Assembly (NCBI GenBank): GCA_021731425.1
Contig: JAKFXJ010000060.1
Span: 1 to 19,784, forward strand
DNA: 19,784 nucleotides
Source: Limnohabitans sp.
GTDB lineage: Bacteria; Pseudomonadota; Gammaproteobacteria; Burkholderiales; Burkholderiaceae_C
Direction of reading: 5' to 3'
The notes below the pieces were generated by a model, which saw nothing but the letters and a program-made list of their open reading frames with translations, did no database searches and had not been told where the DNA came from. The translations under genes and the position numbers were made by a program. Below are positions 1,173 through 17,923 of the stretch, in pieces (the stretch's first letter is position 1; the number at the start of each line of letters is the position of its first letter).

Positions 1173-1229
1173 ATGCAGATCGTCATTGACCTTGTTGCTT
1201 CTGAAAGCCCCGGCAGCTCGCGCCCATGA
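1173..1229 (+). CDS. possible 18-codon leader ORF translationally coupled to alkB
   Basis: An ATG at 1173 is preceded by a good Shine-Dalgarno sequence (GGAGACA, 1162-1168). It opens an 18-codon frame (MQIVIDLVASESPGSSRP) whose TGA overlaps the alkB ATG as ATGA. The alkB ATG itself has no clear ribosome binding site, so translation of this leader could deliver ribosomes to alkB. It may instead be chance, or mark a frameshift in the true N-terminus of alkB. No known peptide is recognised. Confidence 0.35.
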   Translation: MQIVIDLVASESPGSSRP

Positions 1230-2377
1230 GCAACCCAACCGCCCCATTGCACCCGACTTGGCAAGATAAGCGCTGGTGGTGGTTGCTCAGCCCCGCCATC
1301 CCGCTGGCTTTCACAAGTTCCTTGCTGGCTTTTGTCTGGACAGGGCAATGGTGGTGCATGCTGCTGGCCCCAGTGATCATCCATGTGTTGTTGCCCGTGC
1401 TTGACCGCGTGTTGGGCGAGGACTTCAGAAACCCACCCGAATCGGCGGTGGCGCAACTCGATGCCGATGTGTTTTACCGCGCCTTGGTGTGGGCCTACGT
1501 GCCCCTGCAGATGTTGGGCACCGTGGTGGGCGCCTGGATTGCGACTGCGCAGCCGCTGACCTGGTGGGGCTATGCGGCCTTGGTGTTCACCGTGGGCGCG
1601 ATCAACGGTATTGGCATTGGCACCGCGCATGAACTGGGTCATAAAAAAGAGACGCTGGACCGTTGGCTGTCCAAAATCGCCTTGGCCCCCAGTGCGTATG
1701 GCCACTTTTTTGTGGAGCACAACCGGGGCCACCACAAACGCGTGGCCACTCCGGAAGACCCCGCCAGCGCCCGCATGGGTGAAAGCTTTTGGGCCTTCTT
1801 GCCGCGCTCGGTGTGGGGCAGTTTGCAATCGGCCTGGGCGCTGGAGCAAGAGCGCCTGAACAAACAAGGCGTGAACGTGTGGCACTTTCAAAACCACAAC
1901 CTGCAGGCCTGGGGCATGACGCTGGTTTTGTTTGGCGTGCTGGTGGCGTGGTTAGGCTGGATGGCGCTGCCGTTTTTGTTGTTGCAGGCGGTGTACGCCG
2001 CCTCGATGCTGGAAGTGGTGAACTACGTAGAGCACTACGGTTTGCTAAGGCAAAAAGACACCAGCGGCCGCTATGTGCGCTGCGAGCCTGAACACTCTTG
2101 GAACAGCAACCATTTGGTGGGGAATCTTTTGCTGTACCAACTGCAAAGGCATTCGGACCACCACGCCCACCCCAGCCGCCGTTACCAGGCGCTGCGGCAT
2201 TTTGAGAGCGCACCGCAACTGCCCGCGGGCTACGCCACCATGATCACGGTGGCTTATCTGCCGCCCCTGTGGTTCGTGTGGATGGACCGCCGTGTGATGG
2301 CCCACTATCGCGGGGACTTGCGCTTGGTGAATGTGCAAGCGTCGGCCCGGCGCCGACTCACGCAACGCTGGGGCTGA
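1226..2377 (+). CDS. alkB: alkane 1-monooxygenase (AlkB-type di-iron membrane hydroxylase)
   Basis: This 383-residue integral membrane protein has the histidine boxes of the AlkB branch of the fatty acid desaturase/hydroxylase superfamily: HELGHKK at residues 135-141, EHNRGHHKR from 164, NYVEHYG at 266-272 and LQRHSDHHAH at 306-315. Several hydrophobic segments occur in the first 130 residues and around 225-265. Known of the family: O2-dependent terminal hydroxylation of medium or long alkanes, with electrons from rubredoxin and rubredoxin reductase. Neither partner gene is visible here. The length is slightly below that of Pseudomonas AlkB (about 400). It is divergent from an AlkJ-like alcohol dehydrogenase, which fits an alkane-to-aldehyde route. 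The start at 1226 overlaps the stop of a possible leader ORF. Substrate chain length cannot be read from sequence alone. Confidence 0.93.
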   Translation: MSNPTAPLHPTWQDKRWWWLLSPAIPLAFTSSLLAFVWTGQWWCMLLAPVIIHVLLPVLDRVLGEDFRNPPESAVAQLDADVFYRALVWAYVPLQMLGTVVGAWIATAQPLTWWGYAALVFTVGAINGIGIGTAHELGHKKETLDRWLSKIALAPSAYGHFFVEHNRGHHKRVATPEDPASARMGESFWAFLPRSVWGSLQSAWALEQERLNKQGVNVWHFQNHNLQAWGMTLVLFGVLVAWLGWMALPFLLLQAVYAASMLEVVNYVEHYGLLRQKDTSGRYVRCEPEHSWNSNHLVGNLLLYQLQRHSDHHAHPSRRYQALRHFESAPQLPAGYATMITVAYLPPLWFVWMDRRVMAHYRGDLRLVNVQASARRRLTQRWG

Positions 2378-2404: not shown

Positions 2405-3127
2405 TCAGTGGCGCAGCAACACGATGTTGCGATACCCCAGCCGAATCAGCCCCTGATCCTGAAAATGGCGCAACTGCTGGTTCACGCGCTGTCGTGAAGC
2501 TGAAGCGATTTGCGCCAGGTCAGACTGGCTCACCCGCAGCATCACGCCGTCGGCCACCTTCACACTGTTGAATTTGGCGATGCGCTCTAGCGCTGCCCAC
2601 ACGCGCTGCTCCAGACTGTGCATGCCTTGATCGGCCAGCATGTCAAAGAGCTGATTGATGCGCAAGCCCAGGATGCGCAACAGGTCTACTGCCACGACCG
2701 AGTCACGGCCAATCAGATCGATGAGTCGACTGCGCTCGATGTGAAGGACTTCCGTGGTCCCCACGGAAACCATGTCGGCGGGGTTGGTGGCCTCAGCAAA
2801 GACCGAACTCAGGCCTGCGATTTCACCGGGCAGCATCCAGCGAAGCAACTGCTCTTCACCCTCGGGGGTGATCACGCTCACCCGCAAACGACCTTTGACC
2901 AGCAGCATGGCTGCAGACGTGGGCTGGCCTCGGCTGAGCAGCACCTGTCCATCGGTCCAAGTGCGCAGCACACCCACGCTGTGCAAGGCCTGCGTTGTGC
3001 GTGGCGTGAGCGCCGAATTCACGCTCCAGGTCTGGTTGAACTCTGGAGCATCCAGCGCCTTGAAAACAGGGCTGCGTTTGTCAGCCGAGCCGACCGATTT
3101 CTGAATCCGATGACTGAGTTTTGGCAT
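2405..3127 (-). CDS. Crp/Fnr-family transcriptional regulator
   Basis: This 240-residue protein has an N-terminal cyclic-nucleotide-binding-like beta-roll (about residues 40-160, with PGEIAGLSSVF at 100-110), a long dimerisation helix (about 140-185) and a C-terminal winged helix-turn-helix (about 197-235; VSQSDLAQIASASRQRVNQQ). It has no cysteine, so it cannot hold an FNR-type iron-sulfur cluster. In the recognition helix the residues aligned with Crp R180/E181/R185 are R212/Q213/Q217, so the usual DNA-reading glutamate is replaced by glutamine. It is divergent from the transporter/dioxygenase/microcompartment cluster, separated by a 145-base region rich in inverted repeats, and is the obvious candidate regulator of it. 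The effector is unknown. No clear Shine-Dalgarno sequence precedes the ATG at 3127. An in-frame stop at 3152-3154 limits any longer start. Confidence 0.92.
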   Translation of the reverse strand: MPKLSHRIQKSVGSADKRSPVFKALDAPEFNQTWSVNSALTPRTTQALHSVGVLRTWTDGQVLLSRGQPTSAAMLLVKGRLRVSVITPEGEEQLLRWMLPGEIAGLSSVFAEATNPADMVSVGTTEVLHIERSRLIDLIGRDSVVAVDLLRILGLRINQLFDMLADQGMHSLEQRVWAALERIAKFNSVKVADGVMLRVSQSDLAQIASASRQRVNQQLRHFQDQGLIRLGYRNIVLLRH

Positions 3128-3272: not shown

Positions 3273-4271
3273 ATGAAAATTTCTGCTGCTGCATTTGTGC
3301 GCACCACCCTCGGTGCAATTGCTTTGACATTGGGCGCCAGCGCCATGGCTCAACCCGTAGTGCGCTTCCAGGACTACCCTGGCACCGGCAACATGCTCGT
3401 GAAAGTGGCCATTGAACAAGGTTTTTGCCAGCAAGCCGGTATTCGCTGCGAATTGCGCACCATCCCTGCAGCCCCGTTGGGTATGCAAACCATGCTGGCG
3501 GGCGACATCGAAGTCTTTTATGGCCCGACCGAGGTGATCGCGGCCTCGGCGGCCCGCAAAGTGCCTATCAAAGTCATTGCGGCCGGTTTTGTTGAGCCTG
3601 TCTTCTTCATGGCCGCAGCGGCCAACACCGAGCTGCCCACCGAAAAAGAAGGCTACCCAGGGGTGGTCAAGTCCTTCAAAGGCAAAAAAATTGGTGTGAC
3701 CCAGCGTGGCTCGGGCGCCGAATTCCAGGTGGTCGACATGCTGGCCGATGTGGGCCTGACCGCCAACGACGTGACCTTTGTGGCCGTGGGTGCGCCTGAC
3801 ACCGCCTTTCCAGCCCTCACGCGCGGTCAGGTTGATCTGATCATGACTTTCTCACCCACCGATGGCATGTGCGAGGTCCTCAAGGCCTGCCGCGTGGTGG
3901 TCGATCCTCGCAAAGGTCAAGGGCCCAAGAGCATTTTGGCCACGCGTGGTGGCGCAGGTGCCATGGCGGTCAAGGCCGACTGGGCTGCGGCCAATGCCCC
4001 CACCGTGGCTGCCATCCGCAGGACCCTGGAACTGTCGGAGGCTTTCATCACCAACCCGGCCAACTTCGGCAGGACGCTCGAAATCCTGCGCAAGACCTTT
4101 GCATTGCAACTGCCCAATGCCGACCAAATCGCGGAAGTGGCCCTGCGCAACTCCATCGGCACGTTCAAGGCCCGTGGCACGGTGCCCGCCATGCAGGCCG
4201 TGGCAGATTCCATGACCGAGAACAAATTGCTGCCGGGCAAGGTCGACTTGGCTCCGGTGGTGCTGCCCTGA
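3273..4271 (+). CDS. ABC transporter periplasmic substrate-binding protein (NitT/TauT, NMT1/SsuA-like)
   Basis: The start at 3273 is chosen over an upstream in-frame ATG at 3195 because GGAGACGAC lies directly before it and it begins a clear Sec signal peptide (residues 1-26, hydrophobic core then ASAMA, cleavage before QPVVRF). The mature protein of about 306 residues has the two-lobed NMT1/SsuA-like fold pattern (GNMLVKVAIEQGFCQQAGI; later KSFKGKKIGVTQRGSGAEFQ). Known of the family: periplasmic capture of sulfonates, nitrate, thiamine precursors or other small organic anions. It is the first gene of the cluster, 34 bases ahead of the ATPase. The ligand cannot be read from sequence. The nearby TauD-type dioxygenase makes a sulfonate or similar anion plausible, but this is inference. 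Confidence 0.9.
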   Translation: MKISAAAFVRTTLGAIALTLGASAMAQPVVRFQDYPGTGNMLVKVAIEQGFCQQAGIRCELRTIPAAPLGMQTMLAGDIEVFYGPTEVIAASAARKVPIKVIAAGFVEPVFFMAAAANTELPTEKEGYPGVVKSFKGKKIGVTQRGSGAEFQVVDMLADVGLTANDVTFVAVGAPDTAFPALTRGQVDLIMTFSPTDGMCEVLKACRVVVDPRKGQGPKSILATRGGAGAMAVKADWAAANAPTVAAIRRTLELSEAFITNPANFGRTLEILRKTFALQLPNADQIAEVALRNSIGTFKARGTVPAMQAVADSMTENKLLPGKVDLAPVVLP

Positions 4272-4305
4272 TCTTGGATGGCATGGACATGGTCAGGATG
4301 CATGG

Positions 4306-5070
4306 ATGATCGACGCACAGCACATCGACCTCAGCTTTGACGGCACCCAGTGGGTGTTGCAGGGTGTGGGCCTGCACGTCAAGACCGGGGAGTTTGTGGC
4401 GCTGGCAGGCCCCAGCGGCTGCGGCAAGACCACCTTGCTCAACCTGTGTGCGGGCTTGGTGGATCTGCCCCCGGGCCAGCGGCTGCAGGTGGCGGGCCAA
4501 GCGCCTGCGCTCGGCAGCCACGAGGTGGCGTACATGTTGGCACGCGACAGCCTGTTTCCCTGGCTCAATGCATTGGACAACGCCGCCTTCGGACTGAAAG
4601 TGCGTGGCATGCCTATCGCCGAGGCCCGGGAGCGGGCGGCGCAGATGCTCAAGCAGGTGGGGCTGGGCGGCTCCGAATACCGACTGCCCAAGGCGCTGTC
4701 GCATGGCATGCGACAGCGCGTGGCCTTGGCCCGCACCTTTGCCATGCCCTCACCTTTGTTGCTGATGGACGAGCCCTTTGGGGCATTGGACGCACAAACC
4801 AAGTTGCAGCTGCAGGACTTGCTGCTGCAGCTCTGTCAGGACGGTCACCGAACGGTGCTGTTTGTGACACACGATCTGTCAGAGGCCGTTGCGCTGGCCG
4901 ATCGGGTGGTGGTGATGTCCTCGCGCCCCGGGCGCATCGTGGCCGATGTGGTGGTGCCGCTGTCTCGACCGCGCTCCATCCGAGAGCTGCAAACCAACGA
5001 GGACTTCCACCGCACCTACGCCCAGGTGTGGAAACATCTTGAGGAAGGTTGGGTGCACCATGAAGGCTGA
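4306..5070 (+). CDS. ABC transporter ATP-binding protein (SsuB/TauB-like)
   Basis: This 254-residue ATPase has Walker A GPSGCGKTT at 35-43, Q-loop region MLARDSLFPWLNALDNAAFG, signature LSHGMRQR at 131-138, Walker B LLLMDEP with D155/E156, D-loop GALD and switch histidine H189 (FVTHD). The ABC signature is LSHGM rather than LSGGQ; LS(G/H)GM variants are common in the nitrate/sulfonate/taurine subfamily. AGGA at 4295-4298 serves as ribosome binding site. The 3' end overlaps the permease gene by 11 bases, so the two are probably translationally coupled. It would power import of the ligand captured by the preceding binding protein. Confidence 0.95.
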   Translation: MIDAQHIDLSFDGTQWVLQGVGLHVKTGEFVALAGPSGCGKTTLLNLCAGLVDLPPGQRLQVAGQAPALGSHEVAYMLARDSLFPWLNALDNAAFGLKVRGMPIAEARERAAQMLKQVGLGGSEYRLPKALSHGMRQRVALARTFAMPSPLLLMDEPFGALDAQTKLQLQDLLLQLCQDGHRTVLFVTHDLSEAVALADRVVVMSSRPGRIVADVVVPLSRPRSIRELQTNEDFHRTYAQVWKHLEEGWVHHEG

Positions 5071-5815
5071 CACCTTGCGCATGCTGGCGCAGCACGCCGT
5101 GTTTGTCGGTGTGGTGCTGGGCCTGTGGGAATGGGCTGCACACACGGGCTACATCGACCCGAGCTTCATGGGCAGCCCGCTCGGGATCATCAACTTCACG
5201 TTGGAGAACCTGGCCAACGCTCGTCTTTGGGGTGACTTGGGCTACACCCTGTTGGCCGTTTTTTCGTCATTTTTCATTGGCTCGGTCGCCGCCATGGCGA
5301 CTGGCCTGGCCTTTGTCACCTGGCCCAAGCTCGAAGCTTTTTGTGAGCCCTATGTTGCAGCGATGAACGTGCTGCCCCGCATTGCGCTGGTGCCGTTGTT
5401 CATCTTGTGGTTCGGGCTGGGTGTGGGCTCCAAGATCGCCCTGGGCGTGTCGCTGACTTTCTTCATCGTTCTGTCCACCACGGTGGCCGGTATCCGGGGT
5501 GTCAGCCAAGACCACATCACGCTCACGCGAAGCCTTGGCGCCAGCAGCCGTCAGTTGTTCTTTTGGGTCACTTTGCCGGGTGCTGTGCCGGTGCTGTTTT
5601 CGGGTCTGCGCCTGGGCCTGATCTATGCCTTGCTGGGTGTGGTCGGCGCAGAAGTCATTGCTTCCGAGCGGGGTCTGGGTCAACAACTCGCCTACCTCGG
5701 ATCCACTTTCAACGTCAACGGCGTTTGGTCGCTGCTGTTTGATCTGGCACTTATAGGCGTGCTGATCATGAAGCTGATGAACTGGGTTGAACGCCGCCTG
5801 CTGCACTGGCAATGA
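5060..5815 (+). CDS. ABC transporter permease (SsuC/TauC-like)
   Basis: This 251-residue inner-membrane protein has about six hydrophobic segments and a binding-protein-dependent-transport EAA-like loop (SLGASSRQLFFWVTLPGAVP) that would contact the ATPase. The start at 5060 (MKADTLRML) is preferred because GAGGAAGG lies upstream and it overlaps the end of the ATPase gene, as is usual in such operons. Upstream in-frame ATGs inside the ATPase gene would add non-permease sequence. Together with the preceding two genes it makes a complete importer. A 34-base gap with a strong AAGGAGA site follows before the dioxygenase gene. Confidence 0.94.
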   Translation: MKADTLRMLAQHAVFVGVVLGLWEWAAHTGYIDPSFMGSPLGIINFTLENLANARLWGDLGYTLLAVFSSFFIGSVAAMATGLAFVTWPKLEAFCEPYVAAMNVLPRIALVPLFILWFGLGVGSKIALGVSLTFFIVLSTTVAGIRGVSQDHITLTRSLGASSRQLFFWVTLPGAVPVLFSGLRLGLIYALLGVVGAEVIASERGLGQQLAYLGSTFNVNGVWSLLFDLALIGVLIMKLMNWVERRLLHWQ

Positions 5816-5849
5816 GTCCAGTTGCGTTGTCACATCAAGGAGATAAAAA

Positions 5850-6899
5850 ATGAGCTTCCGTCACATCCAGATCGACCCCATGACGCCCACCATTGGCGGC
5901 ATGATCAGCGGCGTGGACTTGAACAGCACCCGCTCAGAAGACGTTTACGAAGAGATCAAAAAAGCGCTCTGGCAATACGGCGTGGTGTTCTTCCGCAAAC
6001 AAGCTTTGAAGCCCGAAGCCTACATCCGTCTGGGCAAAAACTTCGGTGAGATGGAGCAGCATGAATTCTTCCCGCACATTGAAGGTCACCCCCAAATCCA
6101 GTTGATCTCCAACGAGGGCAATGAGGCGCCCGAGACCGATCGCTGGCACACCGATGTGACTTTCCGCAAGAAGCCCAACATGGTCTCCATCTTGCGCATC
6201 ACCGACCTGCCGCCTGCAGGGGGTGACACCATGTGGATGCATGCAGGCGCCGCCTTTGATGCCCTCAACCCCGGCATGCAGCAGATGCTCGAAGGCCTGC
6301 ATGCCGACCACGATTTGCCCTGGGCTTTCCGTCGCATCAATGCCACAGAGCGCTTGGCCAAGCGGGCTTCTGCCAAGAGCGGCATGTTGGTCACGGCCAA
6401 TGCGCATGAGTGCAAGATGATCGAGAACACCCCCACGGTGACCCATCCGGCAGTGATCACACACCCCTATACCGGCCGCAAGATTCTGTTTGTAAATTCA
6501 ATCTGGACCAAACGCCTGCTGGGCATGCACATGGACCTGTCCGAGGCGGTACTGAACATGCTGTACGAGTGGGTGAAAAAGCCCGAGTTCATGGTGCGTT
6601 TCCGGTGGGAAAAAGACTCGGTCGCCATGTGGGACAACTGCGCCACGCAACACTACGCCGTGTTCGACTACGCGCCGCACTACCGCGCTGGCCAGCGCAT
6701 GACCTGCGGCAGTTTTGTGCCCACCCTCAACCCCGGTGCGGCTGCCGCTGGCGGCCAGCCCTCGGTGATGCGCCAGTTGCTGGACACCACCCGCATGCAA
6801 GCGGCCAGCCCACGCGAGCAGCAAGCGGTGGAGGCCATCTTCAGCGCCCTGGAAAACGTGGACCTGAACGCCGTGGCCGCAGCCGCACAGCGCCGCTGA
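5850..6899 (+). CDS. TauD/TfdA-type Fe(II)/2-oxoglutarate-dependent dioxygenase with C-terminal extension
   Basis: This 349-residue protein has the facial triad H100-x-D102 (RWHTDVTF) and distal H268 (NCATQHYAVFDY). R279 aligns with the 2-oxoglutarate-binding arginine of TauD (R266), and R283 aligns with the taurine-sulfonate-binding R270. Known of the family: O2- and 2-oxoglutarate-dependent hydroxylation next to a heteroatom, followed by collapse to an aldehyde plus sulfite, phenol or another leaving group, with succinate and CO2. TauD ends about 13 residues after R270, whereas this protein continues 66 residues past R283. The extension has a G/A-rich linker and a terminal amphipathic helix (about 320-349) that looks like a microcompartment encapsulation peptide. 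It sits between importer genes and the acylating aldehyde dehydrogenase, which would suit it as the aldehyde source. The substrate is unknown. Confidence 0.9.
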   Translation: MSFRHIQIDPMTPTIGGMISGVDLNSTRSEDVYEEIKKALWQYGVVFFRKQALKPEAYIRLGKNFGEMEQHEFFPHIEGHPQIQLISNEGNEAPETDRWHTDVTFRKKPNMVSILRITDLPPAGGDTMWMHAGAAFDALNPGMQQMLEGLHADHDLPWAFRRINATERLAKRASAKSGMLVTANAHECKMIENTPTVTHPAVITHPYTGRKILFVNSIWTKRLLGMHMDLSEAVLNMLYEWVKKPEFMVRFRWEKDSVAMWDNCATQHYAVFDYAPHYRAGQRMTCGSFVPTLNPGAAAAGGQPSVMRQLLDTTRMQAASPREQQAVEAIFSALENVDLNAVAAAAQRR

Positions 6900-6918
6900 A
6901 CCTGGGCAGTACCCTGTC

Positions 6919-8412
6919 ATGAGTTCCAACAACCCCATCGACCTGGCCGACCACGACCTTGCCGCTTTGCAGGAGGCCCGCGACTTGCTGGGCCGCGCCC
7001 AGCAAGCGGCTGCGGTTCTGTCGCAGTGGACGCCTGAAGAAGCCAAACGCGTGGCCAAGCAAGTGGCCGCCGCCTTGCTGCCGCGTGCCGACTTTTATGC
7101 CGAATGGGCTGTGCGCGAAAGCCGCATTGGCAAAGTCCCCGACAAGATCGTCAAGAACCAGATTGCTTGCACGATCACGTCCAGCGCTTGGGACAAGGTT
7201 GCCCTGGGTGGTGTGCGCCGCAACGACGCGCTGCGAATCGTTGAGATCGGGCGCCCAGCCGGTGTGGTGGTGGGCCTGTCCAACTCCACCTCGCCCGTGG
7301 CCACCATCATCTTCAAATCCATCATGTGCTTGATGACACGCAATGCACTGGTCATCTCGCCGCACCCGGTGGCCTTGGCTTGCTGCACCGCCGTGACGCA
7401 TGAGTTGCAAGCCGCCATCGAAAAAGCCGGTGGTCCGGCCCATGCGCTGCAGATCCTCACGCGCCCCACGGTCGAGGCCACAGGAGCGCTGATGCGCGAC
7501 GCCCGTACCGACGTGATTTTGGCCACCGGTGGCACGCCCATGGTGCGTGCGGCCTATGGCTCGGGCAACCCCGCCATTGGTGTGGGTTCTGGCAATGTGC
7601 CGGTCTATGTGGACGCCAGCGCCGATCTGGAGACGGCAGCAAAAACCGTGGTGATCGACAAGAACTTTGACCACGGCAGCCCCTGCTCAGCGCCTTCGGT
7701 GCTGATGCTGCACGCGGGCATTGCACCTCAAATGCAAGACGCTCTGGCACGCCAAGGCGCACATGTGTGCACCGAAGAAGAGGCGCAAAAAATTCAGAAC
7801 TTCGCCTTTCCCGGCGGCAAGTTCAATGGCAAGGTGGTAGGTCGTCCCGCGTTCGAAATCGCGCAGGCCGCAGGCGTGCAGGTGCCGCGCAACTGTCAGG
7901 CCTTGGTGTGCCCCATCGCCAACCCGCAAGCGGGCCATGTGCTGCTCAAAGAAAAGCTCTCACCCATCTTGGGTTGTGTGGTGGTGCCGGGCATGGATCA
8001 GGCCATCGACGTGGCCCGCCTCATGCTGCAGCACAGCGGCGCAGGCCACACCTCCGGCATCCATTCGGCCAGCGCCGAGCAGGCGGTGGTCTGGGGTGCG
8101 GCGCTTGATTACTACCGCGTGGTGGTCAACGGCTCCACGGTGCACGACAGCACCGGGGCCAACACCGGGCTGCCCTACACCTTCACCATCGGCACGGGTT
8201 ACGCGGGTAAAAGCTCGGTGGATTGCAACGTCGGCCCCGAGCTGCTGGTCAATTGGAAACGCGTGGCCTTTCCGTTGACCGGTGGCTGGGCCGGGGCCAT
8301 GGCTTCGGGCGCGGCCTTGCCAGCGTCTTCGGGCAGTTTGTCCACCCTCACGCCTGAGCTTCAGGCCATGGTCCTGCGCATCGTGCAGGAAGAACTCGAA
8401 CACCTTCGCTGA
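6919..8412 (+). CDS. CoA-acylating aldehyde dehydrogenase of a bacterial microcompartment
   Basis: This 497-residue protein is of the EutE/PduP/AdhE-N class: VGLSNSTSPVATIIFKSIMC near residue 120, ILATGGTPMVRAAYGSGNPA (cofactor region), and catalytic Cys256 in DHGSPCSAPSV. Known of the class: aldehyde + CoA + NAD(P)+ to acyl-CoA + NAD(P)H. The active-site context GSPCSAP departs from the usual G(T/I)(V/L)CAS(E/Q) and may reflect a different substrate. After the catalytic domain comes a small-residue linker (GAALPASSGSLST) and an amphipathic helix (LTPELQAMVLRIVQEELEHL), a typical encapsulation peptide layout. It lies 19 bases after the dioxygenase gene and 9 before a shell gene. Sulfoacetaldehyde- or glycolaldehyde-type substrates are conceivable but unproven. 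Confidence 0.92.
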   Translation: MSSNNPIDLADHDLAALQEARDLLGRAQQAAAVLSQWTPEEAKRVAKQVAAALLPRADFYAEWAVRESRIGKVPDKIVKNQIACTITSSAWDKVALGGVRRNDALRIVEIGRPAGVVVGLSNSTSPVATIIFKSIMCLMTRNALVISPHPVALACCTAVTHELQAAIEKAGGPAHALQILTRPTVEATGALMRDARTDVILATGGTPMVRAAYGSGNPAIGVGSGNVPVYVDASADLETAAKTVVIDKNFDHGSPCSAPSVLMLHAGIAPQMQDALARQGAHVCTEEEAQKIQNFAFPGGKFNGKVVGRPAFEIAQAAGVQVPRNCQALVCPIANPQAGHVLLKEKLSPILGCVVVPGMDQAIDVARLMLQHSGAGHTSGIHSASAEQAVVWGAALDYYRVVVNGSTVHDSTGANTGLPYTFTIGTGYAGKSSVDCNVGPELLVNWKRVAFPLTGGWAGAMASGAALPASSGSLSTLTPELQAMVLRIVQEELEHLR

Positions 8413-8421
8413 AAGCCTGTC

Positions 8422-9036
8422 ATGTCCACTTTGCGCAGTTATATTTTTCTGGACCGCTTGCAGCCACAACTGATGTGTTTGTTGGGGTCGACGGCCCGTG
8501 GTTTTTTGCCGCGCCACAACGACGCCGCCATGGTGATCGAAGTCGCACCCGGCATGGACATCGAGTGGCTGACCGACATCGCGCTCAAGCATGACGACGT
8601 CAAGCCCGGCAACTTGGTGGTCGAGCGGCAGTTTGGTTACCTGGAGTTCCACGGCCAGTCCTCTTCGTCGGTCAAGTCAGCCGGTGCAGCCGTACTGGAC
8701 GCCATGGGTGTGAGCGAAAAAAGCGTGCTCAAGCCCGAAATTCTGGCCTCCAAAGTCATTGACCGGGTCGACGGCTACCACGCGTTCTTGATCAACCGCA
8801 GCAAGGCGGGCAGCATGCTCTTGCCCGGCGAATCGCTCTACATCATGGAGATGACCACCTCGTCGTATGCGCTCTTGGTGGCCAACGAGGCCGAAAAAGC
8901 CGCCAACGTGAAACTGATCGACTGCCGCTTCATGGGCCCGGCTGGGCGGCTGTATTTGTCGGGCACCGCATCCGATGTGCGCACGGCAGCCGCCGTGGCC
9001 GAAGCCGTGATCCGCGACGCCGGAGGCGCTGCATGA
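8422..9036 (+). CDS. tandem-domain BMC shell protein (BMC-T), copy 1
   Basis: This 204-residue protein contains two BMC-like domains, about residues 36-97 and 120-200. The second has the readable pattern MEMTTSSYALLVANEAEKAA...GRLYLSGTASDV. Such proteins form trimers (pseudohexamers) in microcompartment shells, often with a large gated pore. It is a clear paralogue of the protein at 10275: both share LQPQ, E(V/I)APG, VERQFG, (I/M)NR, LPG, ANEAEK and GR(L/M)YL(S/T)G. Its stop overlaps the next start (ATGA), so translation is coupled. The exact BMC-T subtype cannot be fixed by eye. Confidence 0.88.
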   Translation: MSTLRSYIFLDRLQPQLMCLLGSTARGFLPRHNDAAMVIEVAPGMDIEWLTDIALKHDDVKPGNLVVERQFGYLEFHGQSSSSVKSAGAAVLDAMGVSEKSVLKPEILASKVIDRVDGYHAFLINRSKAGSMLLPGESLYIMEMTTSSYALLVANEAEKAANVKLIDCRFMGPAGRLYLSGTASDVRTAAAVAEAVIRDAGGAA

Positions 9037-9638
9037 ACACAGACGCTTTGCGCGAACAAATTCGCTCGACGATCCAGGCCAAGCTGGGGGACGCACATAC
9101 GCGTGCGGCGCCTGCCCAAAACCCGAGTCCGAACCAGCCATCCCTCGCGCCTTCTGCCTTGGTGATTCCCTTGCGACTGGGCAGCGCACAAGACACGGCG
9201 GTTTTGACCCAGCTATTTCAGCAGCTGGCGGCGAGTCCGGCTTTGTTGAAGATGGCCGATACAGGTTTACTTCGTTTTGATTTGCGTGTGGATGCGGCTG
9301 CACTGGGCGCCATGGCCCATGTTGCGACCACCGTCCATGCCGCGACGGCCAACAGCACCACGGCCATGGCCGCTACCACCGCCATCGACCCAGCTGCTTG
9401 CTGCTCCTCCTGCAAAGAAGGCAAGGCCTGCGAATGCCAGGGCGACGCCTGTGCTTTGCACGACCACGCTGCCCAAGACGTGCCTGAGCTCAAGGGCGTG
9501 ATCGGCGAAAAATTACTCAAAACCCTGCCGCCCAGCGTGAAAACCGTTCGGCTGCACCCCAAGGCGGTGATGACCCCCTTGGGCAAAGAAGCCCTGCGCA
9601 AGCGCGGCATCACCATTGACCGAGGAACCAAACCATGA
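9033..9638 (+). CDS. BMC-associated protein with six-cysteine cluster, function unknown
   Basis: This 201-residue protein matches no enzyme I recognise. Residues 1-20 (MNTDALREQIRSTIQAKLGD) form an amphipathic helix followed by an A/P/S-rich linker (21-42), the layout of an N-terminal encapsulation peptide. A central region (about 43-100) is followed by a low-complexity A/T stretch. Next is a cysteine cluster with C123, C124, C127, C133, C135 and C140 plus H143 and H145, suited to an iron-sulfur cluster or another metal. The C-terminus (LHPKAVMTPLGKEALRKRGI, 174-193) resembles the xVTPxAxDxLRxxGI element common in EutQ-like and other BMC-associated proteins. Both ends overlap neighbours by ATGA. 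A role in electron transfer or cofactor recycling inside the shell is speculative. Confidence 0.85.
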   Translation: MNTDALREQIRSTIQAKLGDAHTRAAPAQNPSPNQPSLAPSALVIPLRLGSAQDTAVLTQLFQQLAASPALLKMADTGLLRFDLRVDAAALGAMAHVATTVHAATANSTTAMAATTAIDPAACCSSCKEGKACECQGDACALHDHAAQDVPELKGVIGEKLLKTLPPSVKTVRLHPKAVMTPLGKEALRKRGITIDRGTKP

Positions 9639-9904
9639 AAACAGGAACCGTGATCGGCCGCATCGTGGCCAGCAAACGCCTGCCCGAGTTGCCCGCTGGC
9701 GCACTGTTGGAGGTGCAGCTGGACTACCCCAAGGACGTGGTCGTCTGTTACGACCCCATGGGCTGCGGCATTGGCGAGCGCGTGATGATCACCATCGGCG
9801 CACCGGCCGCTTGGTGGTTCGCTCCGGCGCATCCGCGTGTGGTGGCCGACGCGCTCATCATCGCCTCCCTCGACAACTACGACACCCCCACACCGATGCG
9901 TTGA
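9635..9904 (+). CDS. BMC vertex protein (EutN/CcmL/CsoS4 family, BMC-P)
   Basis: This 89-residue protein has the EutN/CcmL pattern: N-terminal MKTGTVIGRIVASKRLPELP, then LLEVQLDY, the central DPMGCGIGERVMITIGAPAAW (family form D-x-V-G-A-G-x-G-E-x-V-L-x-x-x-G), and VVADALIIASLDNYD at the end. Known of the family: pentamers that cap the twelve vertices of the icosahedral shell. Only one copy is present in the cluster. It overlaps the previous gene by ATGA and is followed by an 86-base leader before the BMC-H start region. Confidence 0.93.
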   Translation: MKTGTVIGRIVASKRLPELPAGALLEVQLDYPKDVVVCYDPMGCGIGERVMITIGAPAAWWFAPAHPRVVADALIIASLDNYDTPTPMR

Positions 9905-9912
9905 CGCAGCGG

Positions 9913-9960
9913 TATTTTTTCCTTCACCCTTTCCCTCAACCTTTTCTTTTTTAACCCCTC
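9913..9960 (+). promoter_or_regulatory. G-free pyrimidine-rich leader upstream of BMC-H
   Basis: The stretch 9913-9960 contains no G and only a few A, with T6 runs at 9915-9920 and 9947-9952. It lies directly before the AAGGAGA site of the BMC-H gene, in an operon whose other shell genes are otherwise tightly packed. Unstructured U-rich leaders can bind ribosomal protein S1 and raise translation, which would suit a major shell protein. No hairpin precedes the T runs, so it does not look like an intrinsic terminator. Confidence 0.45.
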
Positions 9961-9978
9961 AAGGAGACTCACATGTAA
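9961..9978 (+). other. ribosome binding site followed by ATG-TAA start-stop, in frame with BMC-H
   Basis: AAGGAGA (9961-9967) is perfectly spaced from an ATG at 9973, but the next codon (9976-9978) is TAA. The frame then reads [10 protein letters not shown], the normal BMC-H N-terminus. The next ATG (9991) has no ribosome binding site of its own. A single base change (for example TCA to TAA) would explain it, as would a sequencing error or a regulatory start-stop. Confidence 0.85.
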
Positions 9979-9990
9979 CAAGCCATCGGA

Positions 9991-10245
9991 ATGATCGAAA
10001 CCAAAGGTTATGTTGCTGCTTTTGCCGCCGCTGACGCCATGGTCAAAGCCGCCAACGTCAACATCGTTGGCAAAAAAGAAGTCGGTGGCGGCCTGGTCGC
10101 CATCATCGTCTCGGGCGACGTGGGTGCCGTCAAGGCCGCCACCGAAGCCGGTGCCGAAGCCGCAGGCGCGATCGGTGAAGTGGTGTCTTGCCACGTCATC
10201 CCACGTCCTCACGCCGACGTGTCCAAAGCTTTCGACGGCAAGTGA
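9991..10245 (+). CDS. BMC-H hexameric shell protein (PduA/EutM/CcmK-like), N-terminus interrupted
   Basis: The open frame from 9991 gives 84 residues with a near-textbook single BMC domain: [52 protein letters not shown], and [16 protein letters not shown] at the end. Known of the family: cyclic hexamers forming the facets of the shell, with a central pore. The family normally begins M-x-x-A-I-G-M-I-E-T, and those codons are present upstream from 9979. They are separated from the well-placed start ATG at 9973 by a TAA at 9976. Starting at 9991 would remove about six residues, including part of the first beta strand. This is the only BMC-H gene in the window, so the defect matters. It is possibly expressed by reinitiation, possibly a sequence error, possibly decaying. 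Confidence 0.9.
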
Positions 10246-10274
10246 TCGCAGGCTGTTGCAGATAAGGAGGCCGC

Positions 10275-10964
10275 ATGGCCACAAGCAAAAAAGCTGCCGC
10301 GTCCGCCCAAGCGCCCGCTAAACCACCAGCCAAACCGGCCGCTGAGCTTCGGGTTTACCTGACGCTCACCGACCTGCAGCCCCAGTTTTCTTCGTGGATG
10401 AGTTCGCCCCTGGGCGCACGCGGCTACGTGGCGATGCAAGGCACCAACGCGCTGCTGGTCGAGATCGCCCCCGGGCTGTCCATCCAGCGTGTGATCGACC
10501 TGGCCCTCAAGGCCGAGCCCACGCTGGAGCCGGGCATCTTGGCGGTGGAGCGGCAGTTTGGCGTGCTCGAGTTGCACAGCAACGACAGCGCGGCGCTGCA
10601 GCGTGCCGGTCAGGTCATCCTGCAATGGATGGGCGCCAAGGCCGAAGACCAACTGCGCCCGCATCTGCTGTACAGCGACATTTTGGAAAACGTGACCGAT
10701 CAGCATGCCGTGTTGATGAACCGCACGCGCCAAGCCAGCATGGTGCTGCCCGGCCAAAACATGTTGCTCATGGAAGTGGCCCCAGCCCTGTTTGGTGCCC
10801 ACATGGCCAACGAAGCCGAAAAAGTTGCACCCGACCTGACCTTGGTCGAGTGCAGCATGATCGGTGCCAGCGGTCGCATGTACCTGACCGGCAGCTTGGC
10901 TTCGCTCGAAAAAGCGAAGGTGCATGTCGAAAAGCTGCTTGCGGAGATTCCGGGCAGGGGTTGA
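10275..10964 (+). CDS. tandem-domain BMC shell protein (BMC-T), copy 2, with Ala/Pro/Lys-rich tail
   Basis: This 229-residue paralogue of the protein at 8422 has a strong AAGGAGG site at 10263-10269. Residues 1-23 are a Lys/Ala/Pro-rich tail (KKAAASAQAPAKPPAKPAAE) absent from copy 1. The two BMC-like domains span about 58-120 (LLVEIAPGLSIQRVIDLALKA...VERQFGVLELH) and 145-225 (LLMEVAPALFGAHMANEAEK...GRMYLTGSLASLEKA). Known of the family: trimeric pseudohexamer shell tile. Two divergent BMC-T copies flanking the vertex and hexamer genes suggest different pores or stacked trimers. It is the last recognisable cluster gene, with 192 non-coding bases before gnd. Confidence 0.88.
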   Translation: MATSKKAAASAQAPAKPPAKPAAELRVYLTLTDLQPQFSSWMSSPLGARGYVAMQGTNALLVEIAPGLSIQRVIDLALKAEPTLEPGILAVERQFGVLELHSNDSAALQRAGQVILQWMGAKAEDQLRPHLLYSDILENVTDQHAVLMNRTRQASMVLPGQNMLLMEVAPALFGAHMANEAEKVAPDLTLVECSMIGASGRMYLTGSLASLEKAKVHVEKLLAEIPGRG

Positions 10965-16612: not shown

Positions 16613-17923
16613 ATGCACACCCTGGAACAACTGCGCAGCGGCGCCTTGGCTGGCATACGCCGCCTCGATCTGTCTTGTGGTCTGAGCGAACTGCCCGAAG
16701 AAATTTTCGCCTTGGCCGACACGCTGGAGGTGCTCAACCTCAGCGGCAACCGCTTGCGCGAATTGCCGCACCAGCTGACACGCCTGCACAAGCTGCAGGT
16801 CTTGTTTGCCTCTGACAACGACTTTGAGGTGCTGCCCGAAGTGTTGGGCGATTGCCCGGCTTTGCACATGGTCGGCTTCAAAGCCAACCGAATTGCCGAT
16901 GTGCCCGCCGCCGCGCTGCCGCCCGCTTTGCGCTGGCTCACACTCACCGACAACGCGATCGGCCGTTTGCCCGCTGAACTGGGCCAACGCCCGGCATTGC
17001 AAAAGCTGATGCTGGCGGGCAACCGCTTGCAGGCTTTGCCCGACACCCTGCAGCAAGCGCACCGTCTGGAGCTGCTGCGCATATCGGCCAACCGCCTGAC
17101 CGAAGTGCCTGGCTGGTTAACCGAATTGCCCCGCTTGTCCTGGTTGGCGCTGGCGGGCAATGCCATGGGCTGGGTGGTTCGCGCAGGGTCCGAGCTGCCG
17201 GGCATGGCTTGGTCCGATTTGACACACGGCCCGTTGCTGGGCGAGGGCGCTTCAGGCCACATTTACCAAGTGCAGGCCAGGGGCTGGCCACAACCCTGGG
17301 CCCTCAAGCTATTCAAAGGCGAGGTGACCAGCGACGGCCTGCCCGAAGACGAGCTGGCCGCCTGCTTGGCAGCCGGGCAACACCCGGCGCTCACCACGCC
17401 TGTGGCGCGGCTCACGGGCCACCCTGCACAGGCCCAGGGTTTACTCATCCCGCTGATTCCTTCGGCTCACGTCAACTTGGCGGGTCCGCCGAGTCTGGAC
17501 AGCTGCACCCGCGACGTGTACCCGAGCGGCTTCAAGCTGTCAGCTGTTTTAGCCTTGAGCATTGCCCGCGATGTGGCCGATGCACTGGCGCACTTGCACC
17601 AGCGCGGTGTGATGCACGGCGACGTGTACGCGCACAACATCCAAATCGACCCGCTGCAGGGCCAGGCCCGTTTGGGTGACTTTGGCGCAGCCACGCGGCT
17701 GCCCACTGATCGGCCCGAACTGCGCAAAAGCCTGCTGGCTTTGGAGGTGCGGGCCTTGGGGTGTTTGCTGCAAGAGTTGGCGCTGGCCGCGCAAGCGCAA
17801 GCGCACCACCCGGCTGTTCAGGCCCTGCAAAACATGGCGCAGCTCTGTTTGTCAGAACAGCCGCGTCAACGGCCGAGCGTGATGGAGGTGGCCCAGGCCC
17901 TGCAAGCCATCGAAGCCATCTAA
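16613..17923 (+). CDS. leucine-rich-repeat protein kinase
   Basis: This 436-residue fusion has, at residues 14-195, about seven leucine-rich repeats of the LxxLxLxxNxLxxLP type (for example LEVLNLSGNRLRELPHQLTR, LQKLMLAGNRLQALPDTLQQ). Residues about 204-436 are a Ser/Thr-kinase-like domain with glycine loop G210-E-G-A-S-G215, ATP-binding K232 (ALKLF), catalytic loop H335-G-D337-VYAH-N342 and D356-F-G. The catalytic loop is HGD instead of HRD, but lysine, both aspartates and the asparagine are present, so activity is plausible. There is no signal peptide or membrane segment, so it is probably cytosolic. It starts 19 bases after the gap terminator; targets are unknown. LRR-kinase fusions of this layout look eukaryote-like but occur in Proteobacteria. 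Confidence 0.9.
   Translation: MHTLEQLRSGALAGIRRLDLSCGLSELPEEIFALADTLEVLNLSGNRLRELPHQLTRLHKLQVLFASDNDFEVLPEVLGDCPALHMVGFKANRIADVPAAALPPALRWLTLTDNAIGRLPAELGQRPALQKLMLAGNRLQALPDTLQQAHRLELLRISANRLTEVPGWLTELPRLSWLALAGNAMGWVVRAGSELPGMAWSDLTHGPLLGEGASGHIYQVQARGWPQPWALKLFKGEVTSDGLPEDELAACLAAGQHPALTTPVARLTGHPAQAQGLLIPLIPSAHVNLAGPPSLDSCTRDVYPSGFKLSAVLALSIARDVADALAHLHQRGVMHGDVYAHNIQIDPLQGQARLGDFGAATRLPTDRPELRKSLLALEVRALGCLLQELALAAQAQAHHPAVQALQNMAQLCLSEQPRQRPSVMEVAQALQAIEAI

What the first reader, a model, noticed from the sequence alone, without database searches (positions are those of the whole stretch)
3273..10964. Microcompartment cluster built around a 2-oxoglutarate dioxygenase and its own importer
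Seen: ABC importer genes, a TauD-type dioxygenase, a CoA-acylating aldehyde dehydrogenase and a full shell set (2 BMC-T, 1 BMC-P, 1 BMC-H), all on one strand with overlaps or short gaps, divergent from a Crp/Fnr-type regulator. Known: well-studied metabolosomes start from B12 or glycyl-radical enzymes, or lyases or dehydrogenases, that make an aldehyde. I know of no characterised one whose aldehyde source is an O2-dependent Fe/2OG dioxygenase. Inferred: an aerobic compartment that imports a small organic anion, releases a toxic aldehyde by oxygenation and captures it as acyl-CoA.
Basis: partly seen in the sequence, partly recalled or inferred. Interest (0 to 1): 0.92.

Follow-up and report, generated by a model that had tools for sequence, protein, structure and literature searches.

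The report
Dioxygenase-fed bacterial microcompartment operon
Freshwater bacteria related to Limnohabitans carry a conserved operon that appears to import a small sulfur-containing acid, split it with an oxygen-using enzyme inside a protein shell, and capture the toxic aldehyde there as a CoA compound, a combination of enzyme and shell that we did not find described.

Summary
Observation confirmed. The order holds in 35 of 35 fetched loci (25 complete, 10 contig-cut), TauD in 32 of 32 that reach it. Four distant loci (TauD 47-48%) keep TauD-AldDH-shell with the importer rearranged. Shell and chassis order match the RMM/AAUM microcompartment, whose front enzymes are absent. TauD ends in a linker plus conserved tail in 36 of 36 other shell-linked copies and 0 of 6 shell-free ones: encapsulation-peptide layout, unproven. 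Fe, 2OG and sulfonate residues are kept; taurine-amine residues mostly changed. Best reading: a metabolosome that oxygenates an amine-free organosulfonate, or organosulfate, and captures the aldehyde as acyl-CoA. Substrate, encapsulation and co-transcription are inferred. Precedents: ARO (extradiol dioxygenase) and anaerobic isethionate-lyase compartments; no Fe/2OG one was found in an open-access library; catalogue supplements unread. New variant of a known kind.

The parts
2405..3127 (-). Crp/Fnr-type regulator, divergent from the operon
   Evidence: PF00027 and PF13545; found in front of the importer in all 25 complete loci, at 32-35% identity in L030, L032 and L034
3273..4271 (+). periplasmic substrate-binding protein, SsuA/NMT1 family (the ORF can also start further upstream)
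   Evidence: PF09084 1.9e-11; TIGR01728 9.4e-19, below cut-off; two importer versions across loci
4306..5070 (+). ABC ATPase, taurine/sulfonate/nitrate type
   Evidence: best NCBIfam row taurine ATPase PRK11248, 204.6 bits against cut-off 357
5063..5815 (+). ABC permease
   Evidence: PF00528; SaoP/TauC/SsuC rows below cut-off
5850..6899 (+). TauD-family Fe/2OG dioxygenase: core about residues 1-292, linker 293-304, conserved C-terminal tail 305-349
   Evidence: PF02668 3.8e-57; nearest solved structure E. coli TauD; Fe triad H100/D102/H268; tail
6919..8412 (+). aldehyde dehydrogenase of CoA-acylating type, Cys256 in the catalytic position, linker and EP-like C-terminal end
   Evidence: tree; activity untested
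8422..9036 (+). BMC-T shell protein, nearest solved MSM0275 of RMM
   Evidence: 2.9e-72
   Evidence: same position in RMM; weak pairwise match, 32% over 44 residues, 3e-4, to L100; alignment
9635..9904 (+). BMC-P vertex protein, nearest solved MSM0273 of RMM
9991..10245 (+). BMC-H shell protein, nearest natural solved MSM0272 of RMM
10275..10964 (+). second BMC-T (double-layer type by resemblance to CcmP), nearest solved MSM0271 of RMM

Best explanation
An aerobic metabolosome operon made of two known modules: a tauABCD-like front (importer plus TauD-family Fe/2OG dioxygenase) and an RMM/AAUM-type chassis (AldDH, BMC-T, linker protein, BMC-P, BMC-H, BMC-T). The importer brings in a small organic sulfur oxyanion. 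TauD, docked in the shell by its C-terminal tail, hydroxylates the carbon next to the sulfur group with O2 and 2-oxoglutarate; the product breaks into an aldehyde and sulfite (or sulfate, if the substrate is a sulfate ester). The co-packaged AldDH turns the aldehyde into acyl-CoA before it leaks, is trapped by sulfite, or harms the cell. Shown from sequence: gene content, linkage, shell type, residues, tail. Inferred: substrate class (amine-free sulfonate most likely, sulfate ester next), encapsulation, reaction order, CoA use.
For: Order in 35 of 35 loci, TauD in 32 of 32 that reach it; four distant loci keep TauD (47-48%), AldDH (48-49%), BMC-T (67-68%), protein, P, H, T with the importer on the other strand. 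Same chassis with other front enzymes in R. jostii RHA1 and G877; those front enzymes match nothing in the window or the 39 TauD loci; shell hits MSM0275/0273/0272/0271. Tail: 32 of 32 loci of the 35 that hold TauD's end and 4 of 4 distant ones, against 0 of 6 TauDs in stretches without shell hits. Among 120 TauD homologues 16 share a contig length with a BMC-type AldDH hit; all 16 have a C-terminal extension (13 by pattern, 3 by eye), against 0 of 55 tailless. dN/dS over 31 sequences: core 0.06, linker 0.18 with indels, tail 0.13. Residues: H70, R270 equivalents kept; N95 to T, Y73 to F, F206 to W, S158 to A; PMC9304159 passages put His70/Arg270 on taurine and Asp94/Asn95/Ser158 at its amine. 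Desulfonation beside shell genes has an anaerobic precedent. PduL family in 0 of 4 genomes, as in RMM (PMC4207490 passages).
Against: No substrate, protein or transcript data. Hydrophobic moment of the tail is no higher than in shuffles (2717 of 5000 reach it). Structure prediction failed. The residue argument has exceptions: P0113, otherwise of E. coli pattern, also has A at Ser158; the 61% tailless relative L112 has I at Tyr73 and F at Phe206; Asp94 is E or D in the four shell-linked TauDs aligned. SBP is only 21% identical to TauA. The importer of 8 loci is 81-86% identical in SBP to that of a shell-free cluster (L127) whose TauD lacks His70, so the importer does not prove a sulfonate. AldDH relatives with unknown neighbours (73 of 100 tree rows) lie inside the clade. 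The scan was seeded by the AldDH, so it cannot show shells of this type without TauD.
Confidence: 0.62

Rival explanations
1. The substrate is a short alkyl sulfate ester: an AtsK-like reaction gives aldehyde plus sulfate, and the compartment is otherwise as proposed. This is a variant inside the best explanation, so the two figures overlap.
For: L127 shares 81-86% SBP identity with 8 shell loci (L005, L016, L018, L019, L021, L022, L023, L026); its TauD type also sits beside an alkyl sulfatase and a sulfatase in L114. AtsK is a TauD-family relative.
Against: The shell-linked TauDs keep the His70/Arg270 pair, and L114, L115 and L127 have G at His70; the nearest solved enzyme is TauD, not AtsK (207.5 against 122 bits).
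Confidence: 0.22
2. The substrate is not a sulfur compound: a TfdA/RdpA-like ether or other carboxylate is cleaved to an aldehyde.
For: RdpA variant 6d1o scores close to TauD (190.4 against 207.5 bits); the 61% tailless relative L112 sits beside a TctC-type binding protein, a family that by recall often binds carboxylates; a relative of the importer lies in a ring-hydroxylating-dioxygenase cluster (L130).
Against: The RdpA variant lacks the His70 equivalent that the shell-linked TauDs keep; importer rows are sulfonate/taurine types, though below cut-off.
Confidence: 0.13
3. TauD works in the cytosol as a sulfur-scavenging enzyme; the shell and AldDH serve another aldehyde and are only co-transcribed.
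For: E. coli tauABCD has the same gene order, with no shell gene in the stretch shown; shell-free clusters pair TauD with an ordinary aldehyde dehydrogenase.
Against: No other likely aldehyde-making enzyme is in the conserved unit; a conserved tail on shell-linked TauDs that shell-free ones lack; linkage survives rearrangement.
Confidence: 0.18
4. It is an RMM/AAUM compartment for amino alcohols whose kinase and aminotransferase lie elsewhere in the genome.
For: All four shell proteins and the chassis order match RMM.
Against: RHA1 phosphotransferase, aminotransferase and permease have no match in the window or 39 loci; whole genomes were not searched for them. The two RMM AldDHs fall outside the TauD-linked clade (support 89; long branches, placement unsure).
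Confidence: 0.05

Closest known systems
RMM / AAUM microcompartment (Rhodococcus jostii RHA1 pRHL2; M. smegmatis MSM0271-0275)
   Same: Nearest solved shell proteins, chassis order AldDH-T-hypothetical-P-H-T, probable homologue of the hypothetical protein, no PTAC
   Different: No phosphotransferase or aminotransferase in the locus; TauD and a sulfonate-type importer instead; AldDH in another clade
tauABCD taurine utilisation (E. coli)
   Same: SBP-ATPase-permease-dioxygenase order; Fe, 2OG and sulfonate residues
   Different: Most amine-side residues changed; extra tail; joined to AldDH and shell genes
ARO microcompartment (Actinobacteria; PMC10470539, passages)
   Same: O2-dependent dioxygenase proposed as encapsulated signature enzyme
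   Different: Extradiol ring-cleaving enzyme; AldDH outside the CoA-dependent family and without encapsulation peptide; distant shell
Isethionate sulfo-lyase IseG with microcompartment genes (anaerobes; PMC6453916, passages)
   Same: Sulfonate cleaved to an aldehyde and sulfite, gene beside shell genes in some bacteria, own importer
   Different: Oxygen-sensitive glycyl radical enzyme, TRAP importer; here an O2-using Fe/2OG enzyme and ABC importer, and the substrate is not known
Shell-free TauD-ALDH clusters (L115, L126, L127)
   Same: Crp-type gene, importer and TauD in the same order; L127 SBP nearly that of 8 shell loci
   Different: No shell hit; ordinary aldehyde dehydrogenase; no tail; G at His70 in L115 and L127 (L126 not in that alignment)

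Membership tests
Metabolosome-type bacterial microcompartment | hexamer, trimer and pentamer shell genes together | tested here: met
Metabolosome-type bacterial microcompartment | AldDH of the CoA-acylating kind | tested here: met
   family rows (below equivalog cut-offs) and solved relatives; by sequence only, activity untested
Metabolosome-type bacterial microcompartment | encapsulation peptides on cargo | tested here: inconclusive
   linker plus conserved end on AldDH and TauD; amphipathicity no better than many shuffles; no model
Metabolosome-type bacterial microcompartment | signature enzyme that makes the aldehyde | tested here: inconclusive
   TauD linked in 32 of 32 loci; reaction untested
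Metabolosome-type bacterial microcompartment | PTAC for CoA recycling | tested here: not met
   PF06130 in 0 of 4 genomes; RMM also lacks it, so not required of all metabolosomes
RMM/AAUM | shell set and chassis gene order | tested here: met
RMM/AAUM | phosphotransferase and aminotransferase in the locus | tested here: not met
   no match in window or 39 loci; so filed as a relative, not a member
Taurine dioxygenase (TauD) | Fe triad and 2OG residues | tested here: met
Taurine dioxygenase (TauD) | taurine amine-side residues (Asn95, Ser158, Tyr73) | tested here: not met
   T96, A159, F74; roles from PMC9304159 passages; Asp94 is E95
Taurine dioxygenase (TauD) | NCBIfam equivalog cut-off | tested here: not met
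   255 bits against 313
ARO microcompartment | pfam02900 ring-opening oxygenase | tested here: not met
   the dioxygenase is PF02668

The most novel reading that the evidence does not exclude
A metabolosome whose encapsulated signature enzyme is an Fe(II)/2-oxoglutarate dioxygenase that cleaves an organosulfur oxyanion, the aerobic counterpart of the anaerobic isethionate-lyase compartment: O2 and 2-oxoglutarate enter a shell, and aldehyde plus sulfite or sulfate are made inside. It arose by putting a tauABCD-type front on an RMM-type chassis, and importers have been exchanged with unencapsulated pathways.
Probability: 0.55. Interest if true: 0.85.

Novelty: new variant of a known kind. Interest (0 to 1): 0.74.

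Why it matters
It would add a reaction class to encapsulated catabolism, an aerobic one, in a genus abundant in fresh water (recalled). Named non-MAG Limnohabitans records hold the locus, so it can be tested. One chassis with two different fronts is a natural case of swapping the signature enzyme of a shell, and shell-free clusters with nearly the same importer allow a direct comparison of two ways to handle the aldehyde.

Tried and rejected
Two independent units: rejected on synteny. Canonical taurine use: disfavoured by active-site changes and the equivalog cut-off; G000 has five other TauD-family genes. Neighbour genes as substrate clue: flanks vary; GMC and AlkB-like genes beside the Crp gene recur together in 5 of 35 loci (L008, L011, L014, L015, L020), so alkane use was not adopted. 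Hydrophobic-moment test: negative for the window tail (2717 of 5000 shuffles reach it); the strongest of nine peptides, the AldDH end of L034, was reached by 151 of 5000. PDB profile search for the 9033-9638 protein: one hit at E 0.18, taken as chance. PF00174 proteins occur in 4 of 4 genomes but do not single out a sulfite dehydrogenase. Structure prediction of TauD and of the 9033-9638 protein: both jobs were interrupted. Tree: 12 locus rows plus 88 of 120 homologues, quick method, long RMM branches.
Full report
What is there. Window 3273-10964 holds ten overlapping or closely spaced genes, all on +: SBP, ATPase, permease, TauD-family dioxygenase, aldehyde dehydrogenase, BMC-T, a 201-aa protein with no Pfam match, BMC-P, BMC-H, BMC-T. 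A gene with cNMP-binding and Crp-type domains (2405-3127) diverges. The window is contig C9 of a fragmented genome (2.8 Mb, 405 contigs, 82% complete), of the Limnohabitans kind judging by its nearest named records.

Conservation. An AldDH scan of genome contigs gave 35 loci, mostly titled Limnohabitans or other Comamonadaceae. In all 35 the genes present keep the window's order: 25 are complete from Crp to the second BMC-T, 10 are cut by contig ends. TauD lies directly before the AldDH in 32 of the 32 whose contig reaches it (L028, L035 and L037 begin in or just before the AldDH). Flanks differ between loci. In the genus, 30 of 90 genomes have the BMC-T at 1e-30 (23 of 56 of high quality). 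In a family sample 27 of 399 match at 1e-30, but only 6, the window's own included, at 65% identity or more; order sample 6 of 399 at 1e-30; phylum sample 3 of 398 at 1e-55. So the locus is common but patchy in the genus and rare outside.

Distant relatives. G294, G728, G862 and G865 (L079-L082) keep TauD-AldDH-T-protein-P-H-T with TauD 47-48%, AldDH 48-49%, BMC-T 67-68% identity, while the importer sits on the other strand, with LysR and MFS genes between (domains shown for L079 only). I fetched contexts of 16 loci whose BMC-T is about 42-47% alike (L083-L098) and three plasmid loci (L046-L048); none gave a match to this TauD.

The chassis. The nearest solved structures of the four shell proteins are MSM0275, MSM0273, MSM0272 (after an engineered tandem fusion) and MSM0271 of M. 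smegmatis. R. jostii RHA1 plasmid pRHL2 has AldDH, BMC-T, hypothetical, BMC-P, BMC-H, microcompartment protein in that order, with a phosphotransferase and an aminotransferase; G877 shows the same chassis with matches to both. Neither enzyme, nor the RHA1 permease, matches anything in the window or in the 39 TauD loci. The 201-aa protein stands where RMM has its hypothetical protein; the pairwise similarity is weak (32% over 44 residues, 3e-4, to the G877 stretch; 20% to RHA1 in the alignment), so homology is probable, not certain. A Cys-rich stretch occurs in the window, L007, L025, L034 and L037 and not in L079, L081, L082, L100 or RHA1. In 28 of the 32 loci with a resolved full copy that protein is 306-329 aa long, in L003 through a SnoaL-like insert; the window, L007, L025, L034 and L037 are short. 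Axen et al. (PMC4207490, passages) say RMM loci lack PTAC and alcohol dehydrogenase; the PTAC family is absent from 4 of 4 genomes searched here.

The dioxygenase. Alignment with E. coli TauD places the Fe triad at H100, D102, H268 and 2OG residues at T127 and R279. H71 and R283 match His70 and Arg270; F74, T96, A159 and W219 replace Tyr73, Asn95, Ser158 and Phe206, and E95 stands at Asp94. PMC9304159 (passages) describes His70 and Arg270 as bonding taurine, and Asp94, Asn95 and Ser158 as positioning its amine. H, F, T and W at 70, 73, 95 and 206 are shared by the four shell-linked TauDs aligned (window, L034, L079, L081), by tail-bearing P0033, P0043, P0062, P0096 and P0108, and by P0013, P0016 and P0021 without that tail; the Ser158 column varies among them. 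L113 and P0113 keep Y, D, N, F, though P0113 has A at Ser158. L112, 61% identical and tailless, is mixed (H, I, T, F). L114, L115 and L127 have G at His70. This argues for a sulfur oxyanion without an amine; it is an inference.

The tail. TauD ends in a linker of variable length and a conserved tail (residues 305-349) in 32 of the 32 loci of the 35 that hold its end, and in related form in 4 of 4 distant loci; 0 of 6 TauDs from stretches without shell hits (L112-L115, L126, L127) have it. Relatives up to 74% identical lack it. Of 120 homologues, 16 share a contig length with a BMC-type AldDH hit, all with a C-terminal extension, against 0 of 55 tailless. dN/dS over 31 sequences is 0.06 in the core, 0.18 in the linker and 0.13 in the tail. 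A linker plus conserved end, also seen on the AldDH, is the layout of encapsulation peptides; the amphipathicity test was not significant and no model could be made.

The importer. ATPase, permease and SBP have sulfonate/taurine-type best rows below cut-offs. Eight loci carry a second importer version (SBP 46-50% to the window) that is 81-86% identical to the SBP of L127, a shell-free cluster of Crp-type gene, importer, TauD and ordinary aldehyde dehydrogenase. L115 and L126 are similar clusters. So nearly the same importer serves a pathway with and without a compartment, which suggests a shared substrate. But the L127 TauD lacks the His70 equivalent, and L114, with the same TauD type, holds an alkyl sulfatase and a sulfatase; so sulfate esters stay a serious rival. 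A more distant relative of the importer lies in a ring-hydroxylating-dioxygenase cluster (L130), so the family is not limited to sulfur compounds.

Aldehyde dehydrogenase tree. In 100 rows, 23 TauD-linked AldDHs lie on one side of a branch (support 89) from two RMM and two other microcompartment AldDHs; 73 rows without known neighbours lie among them, and the RMM branches are long. This fits one origin and does not prove it.

Known or new. The catalogue (PMC8217296; section 8 read whole, outline and passages) names ARO with ring-opening oxygenases and lists metabolosomes without an obvious signature enzyme; its main text has no hit for dioxygenase or taurine. PMC10470539 (passages) characterises the ARO dioxygenase, a real precedent for an O2-dependent signature enzyme. 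PMC6453916 (passages) describes an oxygen-sensitive isethionate sulfo-lyase that gives acetaldehyde and sulfite and lies beside shell genes in some anaerobes, a precedent for desulfonation with a compartment. PMC12263773, listed for TauD and microcompartment, only lists a taurine dioxygenase and cites a microcompartment paper (passages). Searches for microcompartments with TauD, taurine and Betaproteobacteria, Limnohabitans, alkylsulfonate, or 2-oxoglutarate-dependent dioxygenase (the last listed 20 of 63) showed no title or abstract start that describes this system. Supplements, unlisted rows and subscription papers were not seen. I therefore rate it a new variant of a known kind.

Noticed in passing
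window 1226-2377 and 3-1139: AlkB-like membrane enzyme (PF00487, fatty acid desaturase fold family) and GMC oxidoreductase beside the Crp gene; both recur there in 5 of 35 loci.
   Followed up: partly
L003 from 18271 on: Second copies of the BMC-H and BMC-T2 genes about 4.5 kb downstream of the first.
   Followed up: no
35 loci, gene between BMC-T1 and BMC-P: 28 of 32 resolved copies are 306-329 aa, in L003 by a SnoaL-like insert (PF12680); window, L007, L025, L034 and L037 are short.
   Followed up: partly
window 9033-9638: Cys-rich stretch missing in the RMM counterparts aligned; possibly metal-binding.
   Followed up: no
L017: Record titled Akkermansia muciniphila holds the Limnohabitans-type locus; probably a misnamed bin.
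   Followed up: no
L130 5071-11456: A relative of the importer sits with a DmpG-like aldolase, an acetaldehyde dehydrogenase and ring-hydroxylating dioxygenase subunits, so this SBP family is not limited to sulfonates.
   Followed up: partly
window 16613-17923: Leucine-rich repeats joined to a protein-kinase domain in one gene.
   Followed up: partly
P0047 and P0055: Two different tail-bearing TauDs share one contig length with a single AldDH (6847): perhaps two dioxygenases in one locus.
   Followed up: no
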